Shown: positions 5,502 to 24,787 of the stretch, piece after piece
Layout: every line of letters begins with the position of its first letter
Position numbering within the stretch: the first letter of the stretch is position 1
Virus record (IMG/VR): IMGVR_UViG_3300006033_000105
Span: 1-24,821 of that record
Length of the DNA: 24,821 nucleotides
DNA from: a virus
Reading direction: 5' to 3' (one strand)
The notes under the pieces: model-generated
The model's database searches: none
Told to the model about the DNA's origin: nothing
The model's input: only the letters and a program-made list of their open reading frames with translations
Translations under genes and position numbers: made by a program

Positions 5502-5915
5502 ATGGAAAACGACAGAGGCGCGATGATCCTGATCGGCAATCGGGAGTATGAAATGCTCCTGACCACCCGCGCGACAAAAGAGATTGCGAAGCGCTACGGT
5601 GGGCTGGAGCACCTTGGTGACAAGCTCATGAAGGCGGAGAATTTCGAGCTTGCGCTGGACGAGGTAGTGTGGTTGATCGCGCTGCTAGCCAATCAGAGCA
5701 CGCTGGTCCATAACCTGCTTGAGCCTGACAATAAACGCGAGCTTTTAACTGAGGAAGCGGTCGAGCTTCTCACCACTCCGCTGGATCTTTCTGGCTATAA
5801 ATCCGCGATCATGGAAGCGATGGTCAAGGGGACGAAGCGCTATGTCGAAAGCGAGGAGGAACCCTCAAAAAACGTGCAAGTCGGGCAAGCGACGAAGAGC
5901 TGTTTGCCCGACTGA
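5502..5915 (+). CDS. Tail assembly chaperone gpG (unshifted product)
   Basis: This 137-residue protein is the short form of the tail assembly chaperone, which binds the tape measure protein and helps tube polymerisation. It is mostly helical (TTRATKEIAKRYGGLEHLGDKLM, DEVVWLIALLANQSTLVHN, EEAVELLTTPLDLSGYKSAIMEAMVKGTKR). ATG 5502 has GGAGGG six bases upstream. The stop at 5913-5915 lies inside a hairpin just after a slippery heptamer. The last 13 residues are thus specific to the unshifted form; ribosomes that slip enter the gpT frame. This is the expected gene between tail tube and tape measure in lambda-like siphoviruses. Confidence 0.88.
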   Translation: MENDRGAMILIGNREYEMLLTTRATKEIAKRYGGLEHLGDKLMKAENFELALDEVVWLIALLANQSTLVHNLLEPDNKRELLTEEAVELLTTPLDLSGYKSAIMEAMVKGTKRYVESEEEPSKNVQVGQATKSCLPD

Positions 5916-6067
5916 TCTTCTATGGGGTGACACTGCTGGGACGGTCGGAGCGCGAGGTTTGGCTGATGCCACTTGGCGCTCTTTTAGACCAGTGGGAAGT
6001 GTATCGGATAGTGAACGGAATGGCAAGAAGAGGCAAGGAAGGGAGTATCGATGAAATTATTCCATAA
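5502..6067 (+). CDS. Tail assembly chaperone gpGT, -1 frameshift fusion
   Basis: This is the long form, made when ribosomes shift -1 on the A AAA AAC heptamer ending at 5873. It has 124 residues of gpG followed by 64 residues read from 5873 to the TAA at 6065-6067. The gpT part reads DEELFARLIFYGVTLLGRSE, then REVWLMPLGALLDQWEVYRI, and ends GKEGSIDEIIP. This is the usual sequence pattern of the gpT part in Clostridia phages. The gpT frame has no good start of its own, which supports expression by frameshifting. In lambda the gpT part recruits the tape measure protein. Here the tape measure gene is displaced about 3.8 kb downstream by an inserted gene pair. Confidence 0.88.
5867..5913 (+). promoter_or_regulatory. 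Programmed -1 ribosomal frameshift signal (slippery site plus stem-loop)
   Basis: The heptamer AAAAAAC (5867-5873) is in the right phase (A AAA AAC) for the gpG frame. After a 5-nt spacer, AGTCGGGCAA (5879-5888) pairs perfectly with TTGCCCGACT (5904-5913). The stem extends inward by three pairs (G-U, C-G, G-U) to 13 bp with a 9-nt loop. The gpG stop sits at the base of the stem. Heptamer, spacer and stable stem together fit the standard -1 frameshift model. Confidence 0.9.
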
Positions 6068-6122
6068 TGACAAATGAAATTCCAACCCCGACTACTTTCA
6101 ATTGACTCACAGAAGTCATTTG

Positions 6123-6151
6123 TTGACTTTAGCATCCTTGAATAGTAACAT
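6123..6151 (+). promoter_or_regulatory. Sigma-70/SigA-type promoter of the ietAS pair
   Basis: TTGACT (6123-6128), a 17-nt spacer and TAACAT (6146-6151) form a good vegetative promoter about 40 nt before the GTG of the ATPase gene. A second TTGACT lies 21 nt upstream at 6102-6107. It is the left arm of an inverted repeat, TGACT (6103-6107) with AGTCA (6114-6118), that could bind a regulator. This suggests that the inserted gene pair is expressed from its own promoter in the lysogen, not only with the late operon. Confidence 0.65.
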
Positions 6152-6188
6152 TAGTATGGTTTTAATCAATATAAGGGGAGGCGATTTT

Positions 6189-7145
6189 GTGGCAACGGCA
6201 GAGCATATCAAAAATCTGATCAAAGCTCATATTGATCATGATGATGAAAAGTTTAAGACTGTCATCCTGCAAATTGCCGCTTATGAAGCAAAGCATGAGC
6301 ATGAAAACCTTGCTCGTGATCTTAAGCAGTATGCAGAAAAGATTGGGGGAACGAGGGGTAATATCCTACGTTTGAATCAACAAAACCCGATGCTTCTCAT
6401 GACTGTACCCTCAGATCGGATTTCTGATCTTGTTGTCTCCGAAGAGATTTCTGAACGTATCCAGCGAATTATTAATGAGTTTCGAAACAGAAACAGACTA
6501 AAAAAATACGGGCTTTGCAACAGAAGGAAAATATTAATTGAAGGACGACCGGGCACTGGTAAAACTTTCACCGCTTCTGTAATTGCGTCTGAGTTAGGGC
6601 TCCCGCTTTACAGCGTGCAAATGGATAAGATTGTGACTAAATTCATGGGTGAAACCAGTACAAAACTTCGTCAAGTTTTCGATGCGGTTAGTTTGTCCAC
6701 GGGGGTATATTTTTTTGATGAATTCGATGCGATTGGTGCTAATAGAGATCTAGATAATGAAGTTGGCGAGATGCGCAGGATTCTAAACTCGTTCCTCCAG
6801 TTTATTGAGCAAGATACATCAGAAAGCATAATAATCGCTGCAACCAATAATCAAAGGTTGCTTGACCATGCACTATTTCGACGCTTTGATGATGTTCTGC
6901 ATTATTCAATGCCAACGAAAGATGAAGCGCGTCGGTTGTTTGAAATTAAGCTATCAAACTACGACCGGAACTTTCATGTCTCAGATGATCTTGTCGAGAA
7001 GGCGCAGGCACTTAGCCATGCTGAAATAATTCGCGTTTGTGACGATGCAATAAAAAATTCAGTTTTAGCAAGTGAGCCAATAAACCAGAAGCAATTGGTT
7101 TCGTTAATAAACGAACGCATTACAGCGTACTCAAGGGAGGCGTAA
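6189..7145 (+). CDS. ietA: IetA-like AAA+ ATPase of an IetAS defence pair
   Basis: This 318-residue AAA+ ATPase has an N-terminal helical region (1 to about 75). Its ATPase core carries Walker A GRPGTGKT (119-126), Walker B YFFDEFD (174-180), sensor 1 in AATNN (Asn220) and arginine-finger candidates in LFRRFDD (Arg231/232). Family proteins of this size paired with a subtilisin are known as IetA, first described in plasmid maintenance/incompatibility in Agrobacterium and later as part of an anti-phage system. The start GTG 6189 has GGGGAGG seven bases upstream; the in-frame TTG at 6102 lies upstream of the promoter -10 box and was rejected. The stop is three bases before the protease start. 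Base composition is clearly more AT-rich than the flanking tail genes, indicating acquisition. The trigger is unknown. Confidence 0.82.
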   Translation: MATAEHIKNLIKAHIDHDDEKFKTVILQIAAYEAKHEHENLARDLKQYAEKIGGTRGNILRLNQQNPMLLMTVPSDRISDLVVSEEISERIQRIINEFRNRNRLKKYGLCNRRKILIEGRPGTGKTFTASVIASELGLPLYSVQMDKIVTKFMGETSTKLRQVFDAVSLSTGVYFFDEFDAIGANRDLDNEVGEMRRILNSFLQFIEQDTSESIIIAATNNQRLLDHALFRRFDDVLHYSMPTKDEARRLFEIKLSNYDRNFHVSDDLVEKAQALSHAEIIRVCDDAIKNSVLASEPINQKQLVSLINERITAYSREA

Positions 7146-7148
7146 GTA

Positions 7149-9626
7149 TTGGCGGTTGAGAAAAAGAATATCTTCTTGCGTGATACGATGAGGTCTTTAC
7201 CTTATACATCAAGCAGTACTCCTATAAATAGGAATTTTCCTGAGAGAATTAACCCTCAAACCCATGCAGCCTTTATTGAGCGAAAACTTCAAGAGTGCCG
7301 CAAACAATCCATGACCCAGAAACAAGTGGCAGCAATTCGATACAAACAAGGTGTATATTTAGAGTTTTCTAGTTCTGCAAAACATAACTTGGCGATAAAA
7401 AGTTTGGAAAATCGACAAAAGGGCATACGACTTTTAAATGTTAAAACGGATGTCGATTCAGAAGTGCTCAGGGCAACAGTTTATATTCCTGCTGGACAAG
7501 AATCATATTTTATCGGGAAAGTTCAAGAATATGCCGAACCAGTTCCGGAAGGCAAAAATCCAAAGAATAATGATTTAGTTAGAAGTATTGAGGATGTCAA
7601 GCTAGCAATTCTTGATTCTTTTTGGGTCGGTGATCCCAGAACTATGCCTACTGATACTCCTGTCTGGTGCGAAGTTTGGCTTCGCTACGAATATGGTGAT
7701 GTTCCAGCCGCACAGAATGACTTTTTATCATGCTGTTCGGATCTCAAAATTGAAGTTAACGAACGACTCATAATATTTCCTGAACGTGTTGTGCGACTAA
7801 TTCGAGCAAATTCACCGCAGCTTAAAGACATTATAACTGAATGTTCATATATTGCAGAAATTCGTCGCGCTCCAGAATCAACTGCTTATTTTGACGAACT
7901 TCTTGGTGGCGAGCAAAAAGAGTGGGTTGACGAACTGCTATCACGGTCATCATTTCTGGAAACGAATGCAACTGTTTGCCTTTTAGATAGAGGGTTATCA
8001 GCGTCTCACCCATTGATAGCTCCTGCCGTTCAGGAGCAGCATGTTCAGGCAGTGGAAACGGCGTGGGGTACAGGGGATGATGAGGGACATGGTACTGAGA
8101 TGGCAGGCATTGCTTTATACTATAATCTTGAAAAGTGTCTTCTAGATCGACAAATTCTGCTGATTTCTCACAAGATAGAATCGGTAAAAATATTGCCACC
8201 TCGCGGGGTAAACAAACCTGAGCTCTACGGAGCAATAACTGAACAAGCGGTAGCGATTGCTGAAATCGCAAATCCAGCTGCGGAACGTGTTTTGTGCATG
8301 GCTGTTACATCATCTGAGTATAACACACCTGATGGAAGCCCGACGTCTTGGTCAGCAGCTGTGGACAGTCTGACTTCTGGGGCAGATGGAAGTGAAGAAA
8401 GAAGACTATTCTTTATTAGTGCAGGAAATGTTGATCCAAGTGAACTATCGAGCATAACTTATCCAGAAGCCAATATTATTCATAGCGTTGATAATCCGGG
8501 ACAATCGTGGAATGCATTAACCGTAGGTGCATATACAGAAGATATAACTGTCGAAACTCCATTGTATCGTGATTTTTCAGCTGTGGCTGACGCGGGAGAA
8601 TTATCTCCGTATAGTTCTACTTCTGTAAACTGGGATAGTAAATGGCCAGTCAAACCAGAAATCCTAATGGATGGAGGGAATGTTGTTTCAAATGGGCAAG
8701 ATTTTTTGACTTGTCCTGATTTGTCTTTGCTTACAACAAATAGAAACCATCTCATTCGTCAGTTTTCAACGATATGGGGTACAAGTTCAGCGACAGCTCA
8801 AGCTTCTTGGATGGCAGCACAACTTTATGCAGAGTATAAAGGAATTTGGCCTGAAACAGTGCGTGCTTTGCTAGTACATTCTGCTAAATGGACGACAAAG
8901 ATGCGGGAGCAGTTTTGCGTAGAAGATTCAAAAAGCAAAGGACGTAGGGTGTTGCTTCGTACTTGTGGATATGGGATCCCCAACTTGAGTAGGGCTATCC
9001 AATGCATGAACAACTCCGTCAACATGATTATTCAGGGTGAACTTCAGCCGTTTGAAAAAATTGGTGGAAGTTGTCATATGAAAGATATGCACATGCATAG
9101 GTTACCATGGCCTAAAGATGTGCTTCGTATACTAGGCGAGACAGACATTGAATTGCGGGTAACGTTGTCTTATTTTGTTGAACCGGGGCCTGGTGAAGTG
9201 GGATGGAGAGACAAGTATCGTTATCCTTCTTGTAACTTGCGATTTGAAGTAATAAATACTGATGAAACCCTAGAAGGTTTCGAAAAGCGTGTAAACGTTC
9301 AGATGCGAGGTGAAGATAAAAAGGATAAGGGTGACGGAAGCAGTGGAAGCGCACGTTGGTATCTGGGATCTGATAACCGAGATGTAGGTTCACTTCATTC
9401 CGATTTTTATATTGATAGTGCGGTGAATCTGTGTAATGTCAATTATTTAGCTGTCTATCCTGTCATTGGATGGTGGCGTGAGCGTAGTTATTTAGGGAGA
9501 TATGATAGTAAAATTAGGTACTCGTTGATAATATCATTATCCACCCCTAAACAGGATGTTGATTTGTATACTCCAATTATTAATCAGATAACTAGCGAAA
9601 TCCAAGTCAACATACCGACTGCTTAA
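7149..9626 (+). CDS. ietS: IetS-like subtilisin-family (S8) serine protease
   Basis: This 825-residue protein has about 270 residues of non-catalytic N-terminus, then a subtilase domain. Asp280 is in CLLDRGLSASHP, His314 in DEGHGTEMAG, oxyanion Asn427 in FFISAGN and Ser546 in WGTSSATAQAS. The usual proline of GTSxAxP is replaced by Ala550. A C-terminal region of about 230 residues after the catalytic core looks beta-rich. There is no signal peptide, so it probably acts in the cytoplasm, unlike secreted subtilisins. The start TTG 7149 has AGGGAGG eight bases upstream. Pairing with the AAA+ gene three bases upstream matches IetAS, where both genes are needed for phage defence; what the protease cleaves is unknown. 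Codon use is AT-rich like its partner. Confidence 0.82.
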   Translation: MAVEKKNIFLRDTMRSLPYTSSSTPINRNFPERINPQTHAAFIERKLQECRKQSMTQKQVAAIRYKQGVYLEFSSSAKHNLAIKSLENRQKGIRLLNVKTDVDSEVLRATVYIPAGQESYFIGKVQEYAEPVPEGKNPKNNDLVRSIEDVKLAILDSFWVGDPRTMPTDTPVWCEVWLRYEYGDVPAAQNDFLSCCSDLKIEVNERLIIFPERVVRLIRANSPQLKDIITECSYIAEIRRAPESTAYFDELLGGEQKEWVDELLSRSSFLETNATVCLLDRGLSASHPLIAPAVQEQHVQAVETAWGTGDDEGHGTEMAGIALYYNLEKCLLDRQILLISHKIESVKILPPRGVNKPELYGAITEQAVAIAEIANPAAERVLCMAVTSSEYNTPDGSPTSWSAAVDSLTSGADGSEERRLFFISAGNVDPSELSSITYPEANIIHSVDNPGQSWNALTVGAYTEDITVETPLYRDFSAVADAGELSPYSSTSVNWDSKWPVKPEILMDGGNVVSNGQDFLTCPDLSLLTTNRNHLIRQFSTIWGTSSATAQASWMAAQLYAEYKGIWPETVRALLVHSAKWTTKMREQFCVEDSKSKGRRVLLRTCGYGIPNLSRAIQCMNNSVNMIIQGELQPFEKIGGSCHMKDMHMHRLPWPKDVLRILGETDIELRVTLSYFVEPGPGEVGWRDKYRYPSCNLRFEVINTDETLEGFEKRVNVQMRGEDKKDKGDGSSGSARWYLGSDNRDVGSLHSDFYIDSAVNLCNVNYLAVYPVIGWWRERSYLGRYDSKIRYSLIISLSTPKQDVDLYTPIINQITSEIQVNIPTA

Positions 9627-9790
9627 CGCAAGGTGCATTGCTGCCATACCTGAGATCATGATCCTTTCCTGAGGCGATTCTGCATTGATATTTATGTGCA
9701 TGATTTGAAGGACTACCTAAACCAATAAGTGTCCCGTAAATTTGTGCAAGGGTCGAATAAAACAACATAACAAGAGTGGATTCTATTCAT

Positions 9791-9816
9791 AAAAGCGACC
9801 TTCGGGTCGTTTTTTT
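9791..9816 (+). terminator. Intrinsic terminator between ietS and the tape measure gene
   Basis: CGACC (9796-9800), loop TTCG and GGTCG (9805-9809) form the core of a hairpin followed by seven T residues. Flanking A and T residues extend the stem. It stops transcription from ietAS and would also attenuate late transcription reaching the tape measure gene unless an antiterminator or a further promoter acts. From 9627 to 9790 I see no gene. Confidence 0.8.
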
Positions 9817-9846
9817 GTACCCAATTTCACATCAGGAGGTGATGAA

Positions 9847-12186
9847 ATGCCGTCCGACTTCGGACTCAAGATTGGGATTGAGGGCGAAAAAGAGTTCAAG
9901 AAAGCCCTCTCAGAGATTAATCAGTCGTTTAAGGTTCTGGGGAGCGAGATGAACCTCGTCACATCCCAGTTCGACAAACAGGACAAATCGGTCGGTGCTC
10001 TGACCGCCCGAAATCAGGTCCTACGAAAAGAGATCGACGCCCAAAAAGATAAGGTCGAAAACCTCGAAGCCGCGTTGCAGAACGCGGCTTCTTCTTTTGG
10101 GGAAAATGATAAACGCACTCAGTCTTGGCAGATTCAACTGAATAATGCCAAAGCCGCTCTCAACGGTATGGAGCGTGAGCTTGGAGCGAACGAAACCGCG
10201 CTGGAAAGCACTGCGAGCGGACTAGATTCTGCCGGTAAGCAGGCAGACGAATTCGGTGACCAGATCAAGCAATCTGCCAATCAAGCCGACGATGCAGGAG
10301 GGCGTTTCGACAAGCTCGGGTCGGTCGTGAAAGGTATTGGCGTCGCACTCGGCGCGGCTATGGTTGCAATCGGAACGGCGGCTGTGGCTACAGGCAAAGC
10401 GCTGATCGATATGACGGTCAACACCGCGGCATATGCGGATGAAATGCTGACGCAGAGCTCCATCACCGGCATGAGCGTGGAACGATTGCAGGCATATTCG
10501 TATGCTGCCGACCTAGTGGATGTATCACTGGAAACCATGACCGGCTCCATGGCAAAGAACGTGAAATCCATGTCTAACGCCGCCGGCGGTAGCGAGCAGT
10601 TTGCCAAGGCATACGATCGTTTAGGTGTATCGGTGACCAACGCAGACGGATCCTTGCGTAACAGCGAGGATGTCTATTGGGATGCCATCGACGCATTAGG
10701 GCAGGTGGCGAATGAAACGGAACGCGACGCGCTGGCCATGCAGCTCTTTGGCAAGAGCGCACAGGATCTCAATCCATTGATCGCGCAGGGCAGCGAAGGC
10801 ATCGCGGCATTGACCGACGAAGCCAAGTGGATGGGCGCGGTGCTAAGCGAGGAAACGATCGCAAAATTCGGCGCATTCGATGATTCCGTGCAACGGTTAA
10901 AGCAGGGCGCGGCAGCGGCACAACGGGTCATGGGAACGGTACTGCTACCGCAGCTTCAGACGCTCGCGGATGACGGCGTGTCCCTGCTCGGGGACTTCAC
11001 CGCTGGCCTTGCGGAAGCGGGCGGCGACTTCAATAAAATTACCGTTGTGCTTGGTGAAACGGTCGGCGGAGTCGCGAATTTGATCCTCGGCAGCCTGCCG
11101 CAGTTTGTGCAGGTAGGCATGAGTATCGTGAGCGCAATCGGCGGCGCCTTGGCGGCGAATCTTCCAATGCTGATTTCCGCCGCATCCGGCATCGTCATGA
11201 CGCTGCTACAGGGTGTGATCACGGCACTTCCGCAGTTTACGGACGGCGCGGTGCAGCTGATTACTACACTCGCGCAGGGGATTGTCGATATGCTGCCAGC
11301 GTTGGTGGAGGCGGCGATTCAGATGATTGCGTCGCTCGTGCAGGGTATTGGGGACGCGCTGCCGACGCTGATTCCCGCGATCATCGAAGCGGTGCTGCTG
11401 ATCTGCGAAACACTGTTCGATAACATGGACAAGATAATGGATGCGGCGTTTTCGATCGTGAAGGGCCTTGCAGAGGGCATAATTCGCGCGCTGCCGAAGC
11501 TGATCGAAGCGCTGCCGAAGCTCATTACGGGGATCATCAACTTCTTCATGCAGAATCTTCCCATGCTCGTGACCATGGGCATCCAGCTCACGATTCAGCT
11601 CGCGATCGGCTTGATCAAGGCGCTCCCGCAGCTGATTGCAGCTTTGCCGCAGATCGTCTCCGCAATCCTGAACGGGTTCGGATCGTCAGTGTCTTCCGTG
11701 GTGGAAATCGGCAAGAACATCGTGAGCGGCTTGTGGGAAGGCATTAAGAGCATGGCATCTTGGCTTGCTTCGAAGGTGCGAGACTTCTTCTCCAACATCG
11801 TGAAAAGCGCAAAGAGAGCGCTTGGCATCGCGTCACCGTCCAAGGTATTCGCCGGGATCGGCGAGAACATGGGCGAAGGGGTCGGTGTTGGGTTCACTGA
11901 CGCTATGGAGGACGTGAACAAGCAGATTCAGAGCGCGATCCCGACCAGCATAGATGTCGGCGCAATCGACGTACTGACGAACCTGCCGAATAGCATCTGC
12001 ATCGGCAGCACGAGCGATATGCTGTCTCAGAAACTGGACGTGCTGATCTCTGAAGTGCGGCGGTATCTGCCTCAGATCGCAGGTATGCAGCTGGTTGCGG
12101 ACACGGGTGCGACGATCGGCTGGCTTGCGCCGGCCATGGACGACGCGCTGGGCGCAATCAAAAGGCGAAAGGAGCGGCTGGTGTGA
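9847..12186 (+). CDS. Tail tape measure protein
   Basis: This 779-residue protein sets tail length and is ejected with the DNA. Residues about 35-150 are coiled-coil (VGALTARNQVLRKEIDAQKD, VENLEAALQNA). A glycine/alanine-rich hydrophobic segment follows (GSVVKGIGVALGAAMVAIGT), then long hydrophobic repeats from about 400 to 640 with recurring ALPQ/MLPA motifs. The C-terminus (ASPSKVFAGIGENMGEGVGVGF) is typical of Bacillota tape measures. ATG 9847 has AGGAGG just upstream. Normally this gene follows gpGT directly; here the AT-rich protease/ATPase pair separates them. The stop overlaps the next start by 4 bp. Confidence 0.95.
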   Translation: MPSDFGLKIGIEGEKEFKKALSEINQSFKVLGSEMNLVTSQFDKQDKSVGALTARNQVLRKEIDAQKDKVENLEAALQNAASSFGENDKRTQSWQIQLNNAKAALNGMERELGANETALESTASGLDSAGKQADEFGDQIKQSANQADDAGGRFDKLGSVVKGIGVALGAAMVAIGTAAVATGKALIDMTVNTAAYADEMLTQSSITGMSVERLQAYSYAADLVDVSLETMTGSMAKNVKSMSNAAGGSEQFAKAYDRLGVSVTNADGSLRNSEDVYWDAIDALGQVANETERDALAMQLFGKSAQDLNPLIAQGSEGIAALTDEAKWMGAVLSEETIAKFGAFDDSVQRLKQGAAAAQRVMGTVLLPQLQTLADDGVSLLGDFTAGLAEAGGDFNKITVVLGETVGGVANLILGSLPQFVQVGMSIVSAIGGALAANLPMLISAASGIVMTLLQGVITALPQFTDGAVQLITTLAQGIVDMLPALVEAAIQMIASLVQGIGDALPTLIPAIIEAVLLICETLFDNMDKIMDAAFSIVKGLAEGIIRALPKLIEALPKLITGIINFFMQNLPMLVTMGIQLTIQLAIGLIKALPQLIAALPQIVSAILNGFGSSVSSVVEIGKNIVSGLWEGIKSMASWLASKVRDFFSNIVKSAKRALGIASPSKVFAGIGENMGEGVGVGFTDAMEDVNKQIQSAIPTSIDVGAIDVLTNLPNSICIGSTSDMLSQKLDVLISEVRRYLPQIAGMQLVADTGATIGWLAPAMDDALGAIKRRKERLV

Positions 12187-19899: not shown

Positions 19900-21216
19900 A
19901 TGGAGAGAGAAATCAACATTAGGCGACCAATAAAGCCAGCCCTTCCATCGTTTAAGCGAGTTGCTGCCTATGTACGTGTGAGCAGTATTAAGGACGCAAT
20001 GCTTCAGTCGCTTTCCAACCAGGTGAGTTACTACAATTACTTCATTCAGCATCATGCTGGGTGGCAATTTGCTGGGGTCTATGTGGATGAAGGCTTTACG
20101 GGTACTAAGGATATGCGTCCCGAATTCCAGCGTTTACTTGCGGATTGTAAGAGTGGAATGATTGACATGGTCGTTACCAAATCCACCACTCGTTTTGCAA
20201 GGAACACGGTTACGATGCTGGAAACAGTGAGGATGCTGAAAGAATTCAGCGTAGACGTTTTCTTCGAAAAAGAGAATATCCACTCGATGAGCGGGGATGG
20301 CGAGCTAATGCTTACCATCCTCTCTTCTTTTGCACAGGAGGAAAGCCGCAGTGTTTCGGAGAATTGCAAATGGCGACTTCAGGAGAAGATGAAACACGGT
20401 GAGATAGTCGGCCTTCGTGCAATGTACGGCTACAACATAATAAAAGGAAGCGTTGAGATCAATGAGGAGCGGGCGGCTATCGTCCGCTCCATTTTTTTTG
20501 ACTATTTGAGTGGCGTTGGTACTGCCGAAATTGCACGGCGATTAACAGAGAAGAGTGTGCAGACGATTCACGGGGGGCAATGGACCGCAACTAAAATCCT
20601 TGGGATGCTGCAAAACGAAAAATACACCGGAAACGCGCTCTTGCAGAAAAAGTACGTCGCAGACCACTTGAGCAAGCGCAAAGTCCGAAACAAAGGCGAG
20701 CGCCCTAAGTATTATGCGGAGGATACGCATCCGGGGATTATAAATAAAAGCACCTTTGAGAGAGTGCAAGGCCGCATCGCAGAAGAATTACTCGCAAGTG
20801 GAGGACATCGCCCGAACAGTCAAAGATATCCTTTTAGCGGGAAAATTGTTTGCGGCAAATGTGGGAAACACTTCAAAAGGATTACAAAGCGTGGAGTACC
20901 GTACTGGCATTGCACGACGACTGTTCAATCCGGGGCAGCAGCATGCCAATCAAAACGAATCCCTGAGGCTACGTTTTTAACCATAACAGCGAATATTCTG
21001 GGCATCAGTGTGTTCAGCGCAGAAGTATTCGAGAGCAGAATTGACCATATTGAAGCCTATGATGGGAACCGCCTTGCTTTTGCTTTCAAGGATGGGCAGA
21101 CCGTTGAAACCATATGGCAGGATCACTCACGGACGGAGAGTTGGACGGATGAAATGAAGCAAAACGCACGAGAGAAAAATCTAATAAGGAGACAAGAGAC
21201 ACGATGCCAAAAGTAA
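19900..21216 (+). CDS. Large serine recombinase 1 (SpoIVCA/integrase-like)
   Basis: This 438-residue site-specific recombinase has a resolvase domain at about 18-165 with catalytic Ser28 in YVRVSS, FTGTKDMRPEFQRLL, and the DMVVTKSTTRFARNTV arginine motif. A recombinase domain follows (about 175-295; YGYNIIKGSVEINEERAAIV, then GTAEIARRL and KYTGNALLQKKYVADHL). A zinc ribbon comes next (CGKCGKHF...CTTTVQSGAACQ region, about 310-345). It lacks the long coiled-coil extension present in its neighbour, ending instead with HSRTESWTDEMKQNARE, so it is one partner of a two-gene set. ATG 19900 has GGAAGGAGGG. It overlaps the next gene by 13 bp. It probably acts with recombinase 2 in prophage integration/excision. 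Confidence 0.88.
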   Translation: MEREINIRRPIKPALPSFKRVAAYVRVSSIKDAMLQSLSNQVSYYNYFIQHHAGWQFAGVYVDEGFTGTKDMRPEFQRLLADCKSGMIDMVVTKSTTRFARNTVTMLETVRMLKEFSVDVFFEKENIHSMSGDGELMLTILSSFAQEESRSVSENCKWRLQEKMKHGEIVGLRAMYGYNIIKGSVEINEERAAIVRSIFFDYLSGVGTAEIARRLTEKSVQTIHGGQWTATKILGMLQNEKYTGNALLQKKYVADHLSKRKVRNKGERPKYYAEDTHPGIINKSTFERVQGRIAEELLASGGHRPNSQRYPFSGKIVCGKCGKHFKRITKRGVPYWHCTTTVQSGAAACQSKRIPEATFLTITANILGISVFSAEVFESRIDHIEAYDGNRLAFAFKDGQTVETIWQDHSRTESWTDEMKQNAREKNLIRRQETRCQK

Positions 21217-22778
21217 CTATTATCCCGCCGACAATTCAAAGGTTTTCTGGAACCGCAGTTTGTAACGCAAAGCAACGTCGTGTTGCCGGTTATGCACGTG
21301 TTTCCACGGATTCGGACGAACAGTTCACGAGCTTCGAGGCTCAAGTCGAATATTATACACGGAAAATTCAAGAGAATCCGGAATGGGAATTTGTCCGTGT
21401 TTATACCGATGAAGGCATCTCCGCGACAAACACCAAGAAAAGAGACGGATTCAACGCCATGATCGCGGACGCACTGGCAGGTGAGATTGACCTGATCATC
21501 ACAAAATCGGTCAGCCGCTTTGCGCGCAACACGGTTGATACACTGACAACCGTTCGTAAATTGAAAGATCAAGGGATTGAGGTTTTCTTTGAAAAAGAGA
21601 ATATTTACACGTTGGATGCCAAGGGCGAATTGCTAATCACGATCATGAGCTCTCTTGCACAAGAGGAAAGCCGATCGATCAGCGAAAACGTCGCATGGGG
21701 CAAACGCGCAAAAGCCGCGAACGGGCGGGTGTACCTTCCCTACAAACAGTTTCTGGGGTACGAGAAAGGATCTGATGGGTTACCGCAAATTGTTGAAAGC
21801 GAAGCGGAGACGGTTCGAATGATCTACAAACTGTTTCTCGAGGGCAAAACGCCATCAGGAATAGCCCGACATCTTGAACGCTCGCACATTCTCTCGCCGG
21901 GCGGCAAGGAAAAGTGGCAGCACGGAACGATCGTGAGCATCCTGACCAACGAAAAGTACAAGGGCGACGCAATTCTGCAGAAGACTTTTTGCGCGGATTT
22001 CCTGACCAAAAAAATAAAGCGAAACGAAGGTGAGCTTCCGCAATATTACGTTAGTGGGAGCCATCCGGCGATCATAGCGGCTGAGGTTTTTGAAGAAGTT
22101 CAACTGGAGATGAAGCGCAGACGCGAGTCTAACTATACGGCTCGAGAGCATTGCTTCTCAGGCAGGATCATATGCGGAGATTGCGGCGCGCCGTATATCG
22201 AAAAGGTGTGGCACAGCACATCTCAATATAAAAGAAGAATCTGGCAATGTTCCCGTAAATTCAAGAACGATGAGCGTTGCCGAACGCCGCATCTATACGA
22301 GGAGGACGTGAAGGCGACATTTATCCGGGCGATGAACGCAATGATTGATGGAAAGGATGATTTGATTTCAGATTACAAACAGATCATCCGGCTGCTCACG
22401 GATCACGCCGCACTGGACTCAGAAGCAAAACAGCCGACCGAGGAAAGGAATGTTGTGGCTGAACTAATTCGAAAATGCGTTGCAGAGAACGCCGCGAACT
22501 CACAGGATCAAGAAGCGTATCTTGAGCGCTACAAAGGCTTGAAGGTGCGCTACGAGGTAGCCGCGCAGCGGCTAAAACAGATCGAGGATCAACGCACGGA
22601 GCGCAAACAGCGTCGCCAAAAAATGCTGGAGTTCATTCGGATGCTGGAGCAGGCTGATGGACTGGTGACGGAATTCGATGAGGGGCTGTGGAATGCGGCG
22701 GTAGAGAAGGTAATAGTACAACGCGACGGCTGCATGGTTCTTTGGTGGAAGAACGGAATGCAAGAGTGTGTGAAATAA
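21204..22778 (+). CDS. Large serine recombinase 2 (integrase-like)
   Basis: This 524-residue enzyme has a resolvase domain with catalytic Ser34 in YARVST, GISATNTKKRDGFNAMI and IITKSVSRFARNTVDTL. A recombinase domain follows (IYKLFLEGKTPSGIARHLER, then ILSPGGKEKW), with a zinc ribbon (CGDCGAPY...WQCSRKF...CRTPH, about 325-370). A coiled-coil region (about 420-485, LERYKGLKVRYEVAAQRLKQ) is the element that in other large serine integrases controls synapsis direction. The end is FDEGLWNAAVEKVIVQRDG, standard for the family. ATG 21204 overlaps the upstream gene; AAGGAG is 12 bases upstream, so coupling is likely. As the last gene before non-coding DNA at 22779, it is the best candidate for the prophage integrase. 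Confidence 0.9.
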   Translation: MPKVTIIPPTIQRFSGTAVCNAKQRRVAGYARVSTDSDEQFTSFEAQVEYYTRKIQENPEWEFVRVYTDEGISATNTKKRDGFNAMIADALAGEIDLIITKSVSRFARNTVDTLTTVRKLKDQGIEVFFEKENIYTLDAKGELLITIMSSLAQEESRSISENVAWGKRAKAANGRVYLPYKQFLGYEKGSDGLPQIVESEAETVRMIYKLFLEGKTPSGIARHLERSHILSPGGKEKWQHGTIVSILTNEKYKGDAILQKTFCADFLTKKIKRNEGELPQYYVSGSHPAIIAAEVFEEVQLEMKRRRESNYTAREHCFSGRIICGDCGAPYIEKVWHSTSQYKRRIWQCSRKFKNDERCRTPHLYEEDVKATFIRAMNAMIDGKDDLISDYKQIIRLLTDHAALDSEAKQPTEERNVVAELIRKCVAENAANSQDQEAYLERYKGLKVRYEVAAQRLKQIEDQRTERKQRRQKMLEFIRMLEQADGLVTEFDEGLWNAAVEKVIVQRDGCMVLWWKNGMQECVK

Positions 22779-24710: not shown

Positions 24711-24787
24711 TGGTGGGGATGGAGGGGCTCGAACCCACGACCTCTTCGATGTGAACGAAGCGCTCTGACCAACTGGGCTACATCCCC
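24711..24787 (-). tRNA. tRNA-Val (anticodon CAC)
   Basis: Read on the minus strand, GGGGATG (from 24787) pairs with CATCCCC, followed by the discriminator A and an encoded CCA. The anticodon arm is CTTCG-TTCACAT-CGAAG, giving CAC (valine, codon GTG). The D loop has AGTTGGTCA and the T loop TTCGAGC. All arm lengths are canonical, but the D stem has one C-A mismatch (GCCC/GAGC) and the T stem one U-U mismatch (GTGGG/CCCTC). It is probably functional, though slightly irregular. Its 3' end faces the mobile region. Confidence 0.87.

What the first reader, a model, noticed from the sequence alone, without database searches (positions are those of the whole stretch)
6102..9846. IetAS-type ATPase/subtilisin defence pair inserted inside the tail operon, between gpGT and the tape measure
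Visible: an AAA+ ATPase with complete Walker motifs and a cytoplasmic subtilase with Asp280/His314/Ser546, three bases apart, AT-rich, with their own promoter and a terminator after them. Known: AAA+ plus S8 protease pairs (ietA/ietS) occur in plasmid maintenance and as an anti-phage system. Unusual: gpG/gpGT and tape measure are normally adjacent because their products interact, and late genes are silent in a lysogen. A cargo with a private promoter at this spot is a 'moron' that may defend the lysogen against other phages.
Basis: partly seen in the sequence, partly recalled or inferred. Interest (0 to 1): 0.75.

Follow-up and report, generated by a model that had tools for sequence, protein, structure and literature searches.

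The report
Protease defence pair in phage cargo slot
A gut-type bacterial virus carries a two-gene protease and ATPase pair, of a family known to kill or protect its host cell, in a slot between two of its tail genes; close relatives fill the same slot with many unrelated genes, so the pair is exchangeable cargo and not part of the virus particle.

Summary
An AAA+ ATPase (best start GTG 6189, not TTG 6102) and a subtilase (7149-9626) with all catalytic residues lie between gpGT (T ends 6067) and the tape measure gene (9847). Profiles name them IetA and IetS (PADLOC 4e-69, 2e-34), though below NCBIfam's equivalog cut-offs. In every IMG/VR locus with enough sequence (49 of 49), ietA lies directly before ietS.

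What is new is that in the window's own phage clade this spot is a permanent cargo slot. Of 27 distinct loci, 26 are occupied, with about 20 different gene sets: IetAS only here, elsewhere CBASS, a kinase, a GGDEF enzyme, QueD/PerR, LysE/LysR, an HD hydrolase and unknowns. One is nearly empty (69 bp). More distant relatives are mostly empty (~15 bp). The right edge is an identical terminator (9796). The left edge lies inside gene T: its last ~20 codons change with the cargo.

Most likely this is a lysogen-expressed IetAS cassette acting by controlled proteolysis (abortive infection and/or prophage addiction). Neither activity was tested, and much of the slot's cargo is not defence.

The parts
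5502..5915 (+). gpG, tail assembly chaperone, 0 frame
   Evidence: PHROG 2115 tail protein 1e-24; 91-96% identical in close relatives
5867..5873 (+). A_AAA_AAC slippery heptamer for the -1 frameshift giving gpGT
   Evidence: read from sequence; AAAAAAC found in 26 of the close-clade loci
5868..6067 (+). T domain of gpGT, -1 frame; conserved body to about 6005, variable tail 6005-6067
   Evidence: translation; body 85% and tail 46% identical between phages with different cargo, tail 92% with the same cargo; empty-site control tail 75%
6005..9795 (+). IetAS cargo cassette (variable 3' end of T, promoter, ietA, ietS, 3' spacer)
   Evidence: identity breaks at 6005; homology to relatives resumes exactly at 9796; GC 41%
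6123..6151 (+). promoter-like site TTGACT-17-TAACAT
   Evidence: p = 0.035 against shuffles; inferred, not shown to be active
6189..7145 (+). IetA-type AAA+ ATPase (GTG start, 318 aa); Walker A Lys125
   Evidence: PADLOC IetA 4e-69; alignment A2
7149..9626 (+). IetS-type subtilase (TTG start, 825 aa); Asp280/His314/Ser546
   Evidence: PADLOC IetS 2e-34; Peptidase_S8 3e-59; A1, A3; subtilisin-like fold
9796..9816 (+). intrinsic terminator shared by unrelated cargoes at this slot
9847..12186 (+). tape measure protein
   Evidence: PHROG 58 5e-67; 89-95% identical in close relatives

Best explanation
This is a moron-type cargo cassette in a recurrent cargo slot of a temperate Christensenellales siphophage. 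It carries an IetAS-type operon. Shown: the pair is an insert; the site is occupied by different genes in nearly every close relative; the right edge is a conserved terminator and the left edge lies in the 3' end of gene T; the active-site residues are intact. Inferred: the promoter at 6123 transcribes ietA-ietS in the lysogen, and the terminator at 9796 keeps that transcript out of the tape measure and later genes. IetA, a Cdc48-like AAA+ ATPase, holds IetS, a cytoplasmic subtilase, in check. When a competing phage disturbs IetA, or when IetA is lost, IetS cleaves cell proteins and stops growth or kills the cell, which protects the lysogen's kin (abortive infection) and also punishes loss of the prophage. 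Cassettes are swapped by homologous recombination between the conserved T body and the terminator/tape-measure start. My split: cargo cassette of the IetAS family about 0.95; defence as the main selected role about 0.6; addiction as the main role about 0.25.
For: IetA/IetS profile hits. Catalytic residues invariant. IetA directly precedes IetS in 49 of 49 viral loci with room, and the other 4 are cut by contig ends. A 64/75% identical pair sits in an unrelated prophage of a relative's host genome, after the lysis genes. Slot occupied in 26 of 27 close loci by about 20 gene sets, including CBASS cyclase + SLATT_4 and a Stk2-like kinase. Empty form: L020, 69 bp, and ~15 bp in most distant relatives. 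Terminator conserved between unrelated cargoes. T tail co-varies with cargo, with an empty-site control. Cargo moves between phages: L214/L034 cargo DNA is 79% identical against 67% for the tape measure gene; L055/L024 77% against 67% over only 331 bp. Integrases in the phage. Relatives act as toxin-antitoxin in SGI1 and mycoplasma.
Against: No expression, toxicity or phage assay. Promoter evidence is weak. Neither protein reaches NCBIfam's equivalog cut-off for the named anti-phage pair (198 of 510 and 51 of 900 bits). Much of the slot's cargo is regulatory or metabolic, so location does not imply defence. IetAS is found here in one phage only. A terminator inside a late operon must be passed in lytic growth, by antitermination or leakage, and no such factor was identified.
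Confidence: 0.62

Rival explanations
1. Addiction module: IetS is a toxin and IetA its antitoxin, kept because cells that lose the prophage die, with no important role against phages.
For: The activity demonstrated for pTiC58 (Yamamoto 2009, cited in PMC8562856), for SGI1 S026/S025 and for mycoplasma pairs is toxin-antitoxin and element stability. Other occupants of the same site in distant phages include PIN- and RelE-like toxin-antitoxin genes (read; the PIN protein has only a weak profile hit).
Against: An integrated prophage with integrases needs little stabilising; neighbouring phages carry CBASS and a kinase in the same slot. The two roles do not exclude each other.
Confidence: 0.25
2. 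Host-benefit or regulatory protease (protein quality control or cleavage of a host regulator), one more lysogenic-conversion gene of a slot that mostly carries regulators and metabolic genes.
For: Slot cargo includes GGDEF, PerR/QueD, LysE/LysR, HD hydrolase and lipoproteins.
Against: The two-gene order and family are those of known toxin/defence pairs.
Confidence: 0.1
3. Phage morphogenesis function (processing protease for tail or head assembly) inserted in the tail operon.
For: It lies in the tail operon on the same strand, and phages do use proteases in assembly.
Against: Absent from all other phages with 89-95% identical tape measure proteins; 41% GC; terminator between it and the tape measure gene; homologues on plasmids and in unrelated prophages.
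Confidence: 0.02
4. Anti-defence gene: the protease is made in the lytic cycle and destroys host defence proteins.
For: It lies among late genes, which will be transcribed through it in lytic growth.
Against: Anti-defence is usually early; own promoter-like site and terminator; family precedent is toxin/defence.
Confidence: 0.03

Closest known systems
IetAS / IteAS (AAA+ ATPase and S8 peptidase; pTiC58 ietAS, SGI1 S026/S025, anti-phage IteA/IteS in NCBIfam)
   Same: gene order, domain content, catalytic residues, 33-64% (IetS) and 38-75% (IetA) identity to relatives
   Different: below NCBIfam equivalog cut-offs; found here inside a phage tail operon of a Clostridia phage instead of on a plasmid, island or other prophage locus
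HK97 gp15 moron (superinfection exclusion)
   Same: lies between gpGT-type frameshifted chaperone and tape measure genes, followed by a terminator (record annotation)
   Different: one small protein against a 3.8-kb enzyme pair; here the same slot holds about 20 alternative cargoes
P2/P4 defence hotspots and the Vibrio and Bacillus prophage hotspots (Rousset 2022, PMC9122126)
   Same: a fixed place in related prophages with high turnover of defence genes
   Different: the Vibrio and Bacillus ones named lie next to repressor, regulator or integrase genes; this one is inside the tail operon, with a fixed terminator and cargo-linked 3' end of gene T, and carries much non-defence cargo
Tab moron of phage JBD26 (PMC10884400)
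   Same: defence gene with own promoter inside the late operon
   Different: between terminase genes, blocks tail assembly, unrelated protein

Membership tests
IetAS | IetA: AAA+ ATPase matching IetA profiles | tested here: met
   PADLOC IetA 4e-69 over nearly the whole protein; Walker A Lys125 invariant
IetAS | IetS: S8 peptidase matching IetS profiles with intact triad | tested here: met
   PADLOC IetS 2e-34, PF00082 3e-59, D280/H314/S546 invariant
IetAS | two-gene operon, ietA then ietS | tested here: met
   three bases apart; same order in 49/49 viral loci with room
IetAS | NCBIfam equivalog cut-offs for anti-phage IteA/IteS | tested here: not met
   198 of 510 and 51 of 900 bits: same family, not an equivalog of the tested pair
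IetAS | toxicity of IetS relieved by IetA, or phage protection | not testable with these tools
   needs expression and plaque assays
Phage moron | insert between genes adjacent in relatives | tested here: met
   T and tape measure genes ~15 bp apart in most distant relatives, 69 bp in L020
Phage moron | own promoter and terminator | tested here: inconclusive
   terminator strong; promoter only p = 0.035
Phage moron | expressed in the lysogen | not testable with these tools
   needs RNA
Prophage defence hotspot | one site, related phages, high turnover of cargo including defence systems | tested here: met
   26/27 occupied, about 20 gene sets; CBASS, Stk2-like kinase and IetAS among them

The most novel reading that the evidence does not exclude
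The gpGT/tape-measure junction of these Clostridia phages is a dedicated cassette-exchange locus: each cassette brings its own 3' end of the frameshift-expressed T domain (in one case with a promoter-like site inside it) and docks against a fixed terminator. Its unassigned occupants (L008, L009, L011, L039, L041) would then be candidates for untested defence systems or lysogenic-conversion genes.
Probability: 0.4. Interest if true: 0.65.

Novelty: new variant of a known kind. Interest (0 to 1): 0.5.

Why it matters
It gives one more place to look for phage-borne defence and lysogenic-conversion genes, in Christensenellales phages, a little-studied group. The slot can be found by its two conserved neighbours and a fixed terminator, so its cargo can be listed from metagenomes. 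The linkage of the T tail to the cargo raises a testable question: does the end of T tolerate anything, or must it match the cassette? It also shows that a defence-type gene pair inside a virion operon need not have anything to do with the virion.

Tried and rejected
Single-protein pattern search for IetS in IMG/VR found nothing; the alignment search found 53 loci. Insert ends were searched for direct or inverted repeats, as a transposon or integrase would leave: no more than shuffled sequence gives. No recombinase was recognised among the cargo ORFs of the close clade, so homologous recombination is favoured by elimination only. The promoter test across all cargoes is not clearly above the control (10/26 against 5/26 with p < 0.1), so I do not claim a promoter for every cassette. 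A first ungapped T-tail comparison mixed loci of different T length; it was redone by alignment and with an empty-site control. The idea that the T tail always travels with its cargo across distant phages was only partly borne out (L214/L034 yes, L055/L024 no). The IetS model (pLDDT 77) supports a subtilase fold only; the N- and C-terminal regions remain unassigned. IetAS is rare in the host order: 1 weak hit in 297 genomes. No open-access report of IetAS in a gpGT/tape-measure slot was found in 9 paper searches; subscription papers were not searchable, so priority is not certain.

Full report
What is there. The window is a 24,821-base IMG/VR virus record. It runs from portal and major head genes through the tail genes to an endolysin-like gene and two integrases. 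Between the frameshifted tail chaperone gpGT and the tape measure gene lie an AAA+ ATPase gene and a subtilase gene. The chaperone is intact: A_AAA_AAC at 5867-5873, T domain in the -1 frame to the stop at 6065-6067. The pair is 41% GC against 52-60% in the flanks.

Identity of the pair. PADLOC places the proteins with IetA (4e-69) and IetS (2e-34). Lys125 and the triad Asp280/His314/Ser546 are invariant in alignments of plasmid and viral relatives. The predicted IetS fold is subtilisin-like, and the sequence search finds no solved structure of IetS itself. NCBIfam's equivalog models for the anti-phage pair are hit far below cut-off, so the pair is a family member and not an orthologue of a tested system. 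Plasmids hold 488 records with relatives. Of 53 viral loci, ietA directly precedes ietS in all 49 that have room for it.

The place. I collected relatives by the chaperone, the major tail protein and the tape measure protein. In most distant relatives T and the tape measure gene are about 15 bases apart. In the window's own clade (tape measure over 85% identical) 27 distinct loci were found: 26, counting the window, hold 500 to 6,758 bases, and one (L020) holds 69. Several come from overlapping sampling projects, so they are not fully independent. The 26 hold about 20 gene sets. Profile hits: SMODS cyclase with SLATT_4 effector (CBASS type, L002); Stk2-like kinase (L021); a weak AbiTii-like match (L026); a lone IetA-like AAA+ protein (L024, L025, L030); GGDEF (L010, L016, L037); PTPS/QueD with a Fur-family regulator; LysE with LysR (L017); a SpoT-like HD hydrolase (L031, L033); large lipoproteins; and five with no recognised function (L008, L009, L011, L041; L039 with DUF7669 only). 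More distant phages carry, at the same site, a SoFic-type Fic protein, a NERD nuclease protein and toxin-antitoxin-like pairs. IetAS occurs at this site only in the window.

The edges. On the right, CGACCTTCGGGTCGTTTTTTT followed by the ribosome site and start of the tape measure gene is shared by phages with unrelated cargo; homology of the window to its relatives resumes at its first base, 9796. Inserts whose only or last gene points the other way tend to lack it or carry a degenerate copy (read by eye). On the left, identity drops inside gene T at about 6005. Between phages with different cargo the T body is 85% identical and the tail 46%; with the same cargo the tail is 92%; between cargo-free phages of equal body identity the tail is 75% and never below 55%. 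The 3' end of T therefore belongs to the cassette within this clade. In L031/L033 the best promoter-like site lies inside it.

Movement. The same cargo occurs in phages whose tails are far apart: L214 and L034 share the 257-aa membrane protein and the HD hydrolase at 79% DNA identity while their tape measure genes are at 67%; L055 and L024 share the AAA+ protein at 77%. One host genome (G002) holds two related prophages with different cargo, and another (G001) holds two such slots in divergent prophages plus a second IetAS pair in a third, after its lysis genes. No repeats or recombinase genes mark the edges. Homologous recombination in the conserved flanks is the simplest account, by inference.

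Function. That IetS is a toxin held by IetA is established for relatives (PMC5006074; PMC8562856), and a review lists ietAS among anti-phage systems with phage determinants (PMC10286901). For this pair nothing was measured. I favour defence of the lysogen by abortive infection, with addiction as the main rival. The slot argues for lysogenic cargo but not for defence, because much of its cargo is regulatory or metabolic.

Comparison. The HK97 record has the gp15 moron and a terminator between the same two genes, so the location has a classic precedent; HK97 gp15 as a superinfection exclusion protein is Cumby 2012, cited in PMC10884400 (paper itself not held). Defence hotspots in prophages are known from P2, P4 and others, but the ones described there lie elsewhere. 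I therefore class the finding as a new variant of a known kind: a known pair, in a known type of place, that turns out to be a high-turnover cargo slot with a fixed terminator and a cargo-linked gene end.

Noticed in passing
window 19900-22778: Two overlapping large serine recombinases in tandem (PHROG 95 integrase, E 2e-115 and 2e-142), the second starting 13 bases before the first ends.
   Followed up: no
window 24711-24787: tRNA-Val(cac) on the - strand near the right end, in a GC-poor stretch after the integrases; may be host flank, which would put the prophage end between about 22800 and 24700.
   Followed up: no
L002:1881-3303: CBASS-type pair (SMODS cyclase PF18144 4e-43, SLATT_4 effector PF18186 3e-53) in the same slot of a phage with a 94% identical tape measure protein.
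   Followed up: partly
L314:8700-12128 (G001 contig 14): Second IetAS pair (64/75% identical to the window's) at the end of a different prophage, downstream of lysis-type genes, in the genome that also holds the L226 prophage.
   Followed up: partly
L033:4113-4541, L031, L034, L214, L375, L376: A 143-aa HD hydrolase resembling the SpoT/RelA hydrolase domain recurs at this slot, often behind a 257-aa membrane protein with no family; could be a small alarmone hydrolase.
   Followed up: partly
L010:7846-8886, L004, L005, L007, L016: QueD-like and Fur/PerR-like genes travel together on the - strand in the slot, an unusual metabolic/regulatory phage cargo.
   Followed up: no
L024:6640-8220, L025, L030, L055: A 527-aa protein with an IetA-like AAA+ domain and no protease partner occupies the slot in four phages, one of them of very different tail type.
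   Followed up: partly
L227:354-6844: Largest cargo (6.8 kb, six genes: lipase-like, a 153-aa protein that looks like a LytTR regulator, two membrane proteins, HD hydrolase, lipoprotein) looks like several smaller cargoes joined end to end.
   Followed up: no
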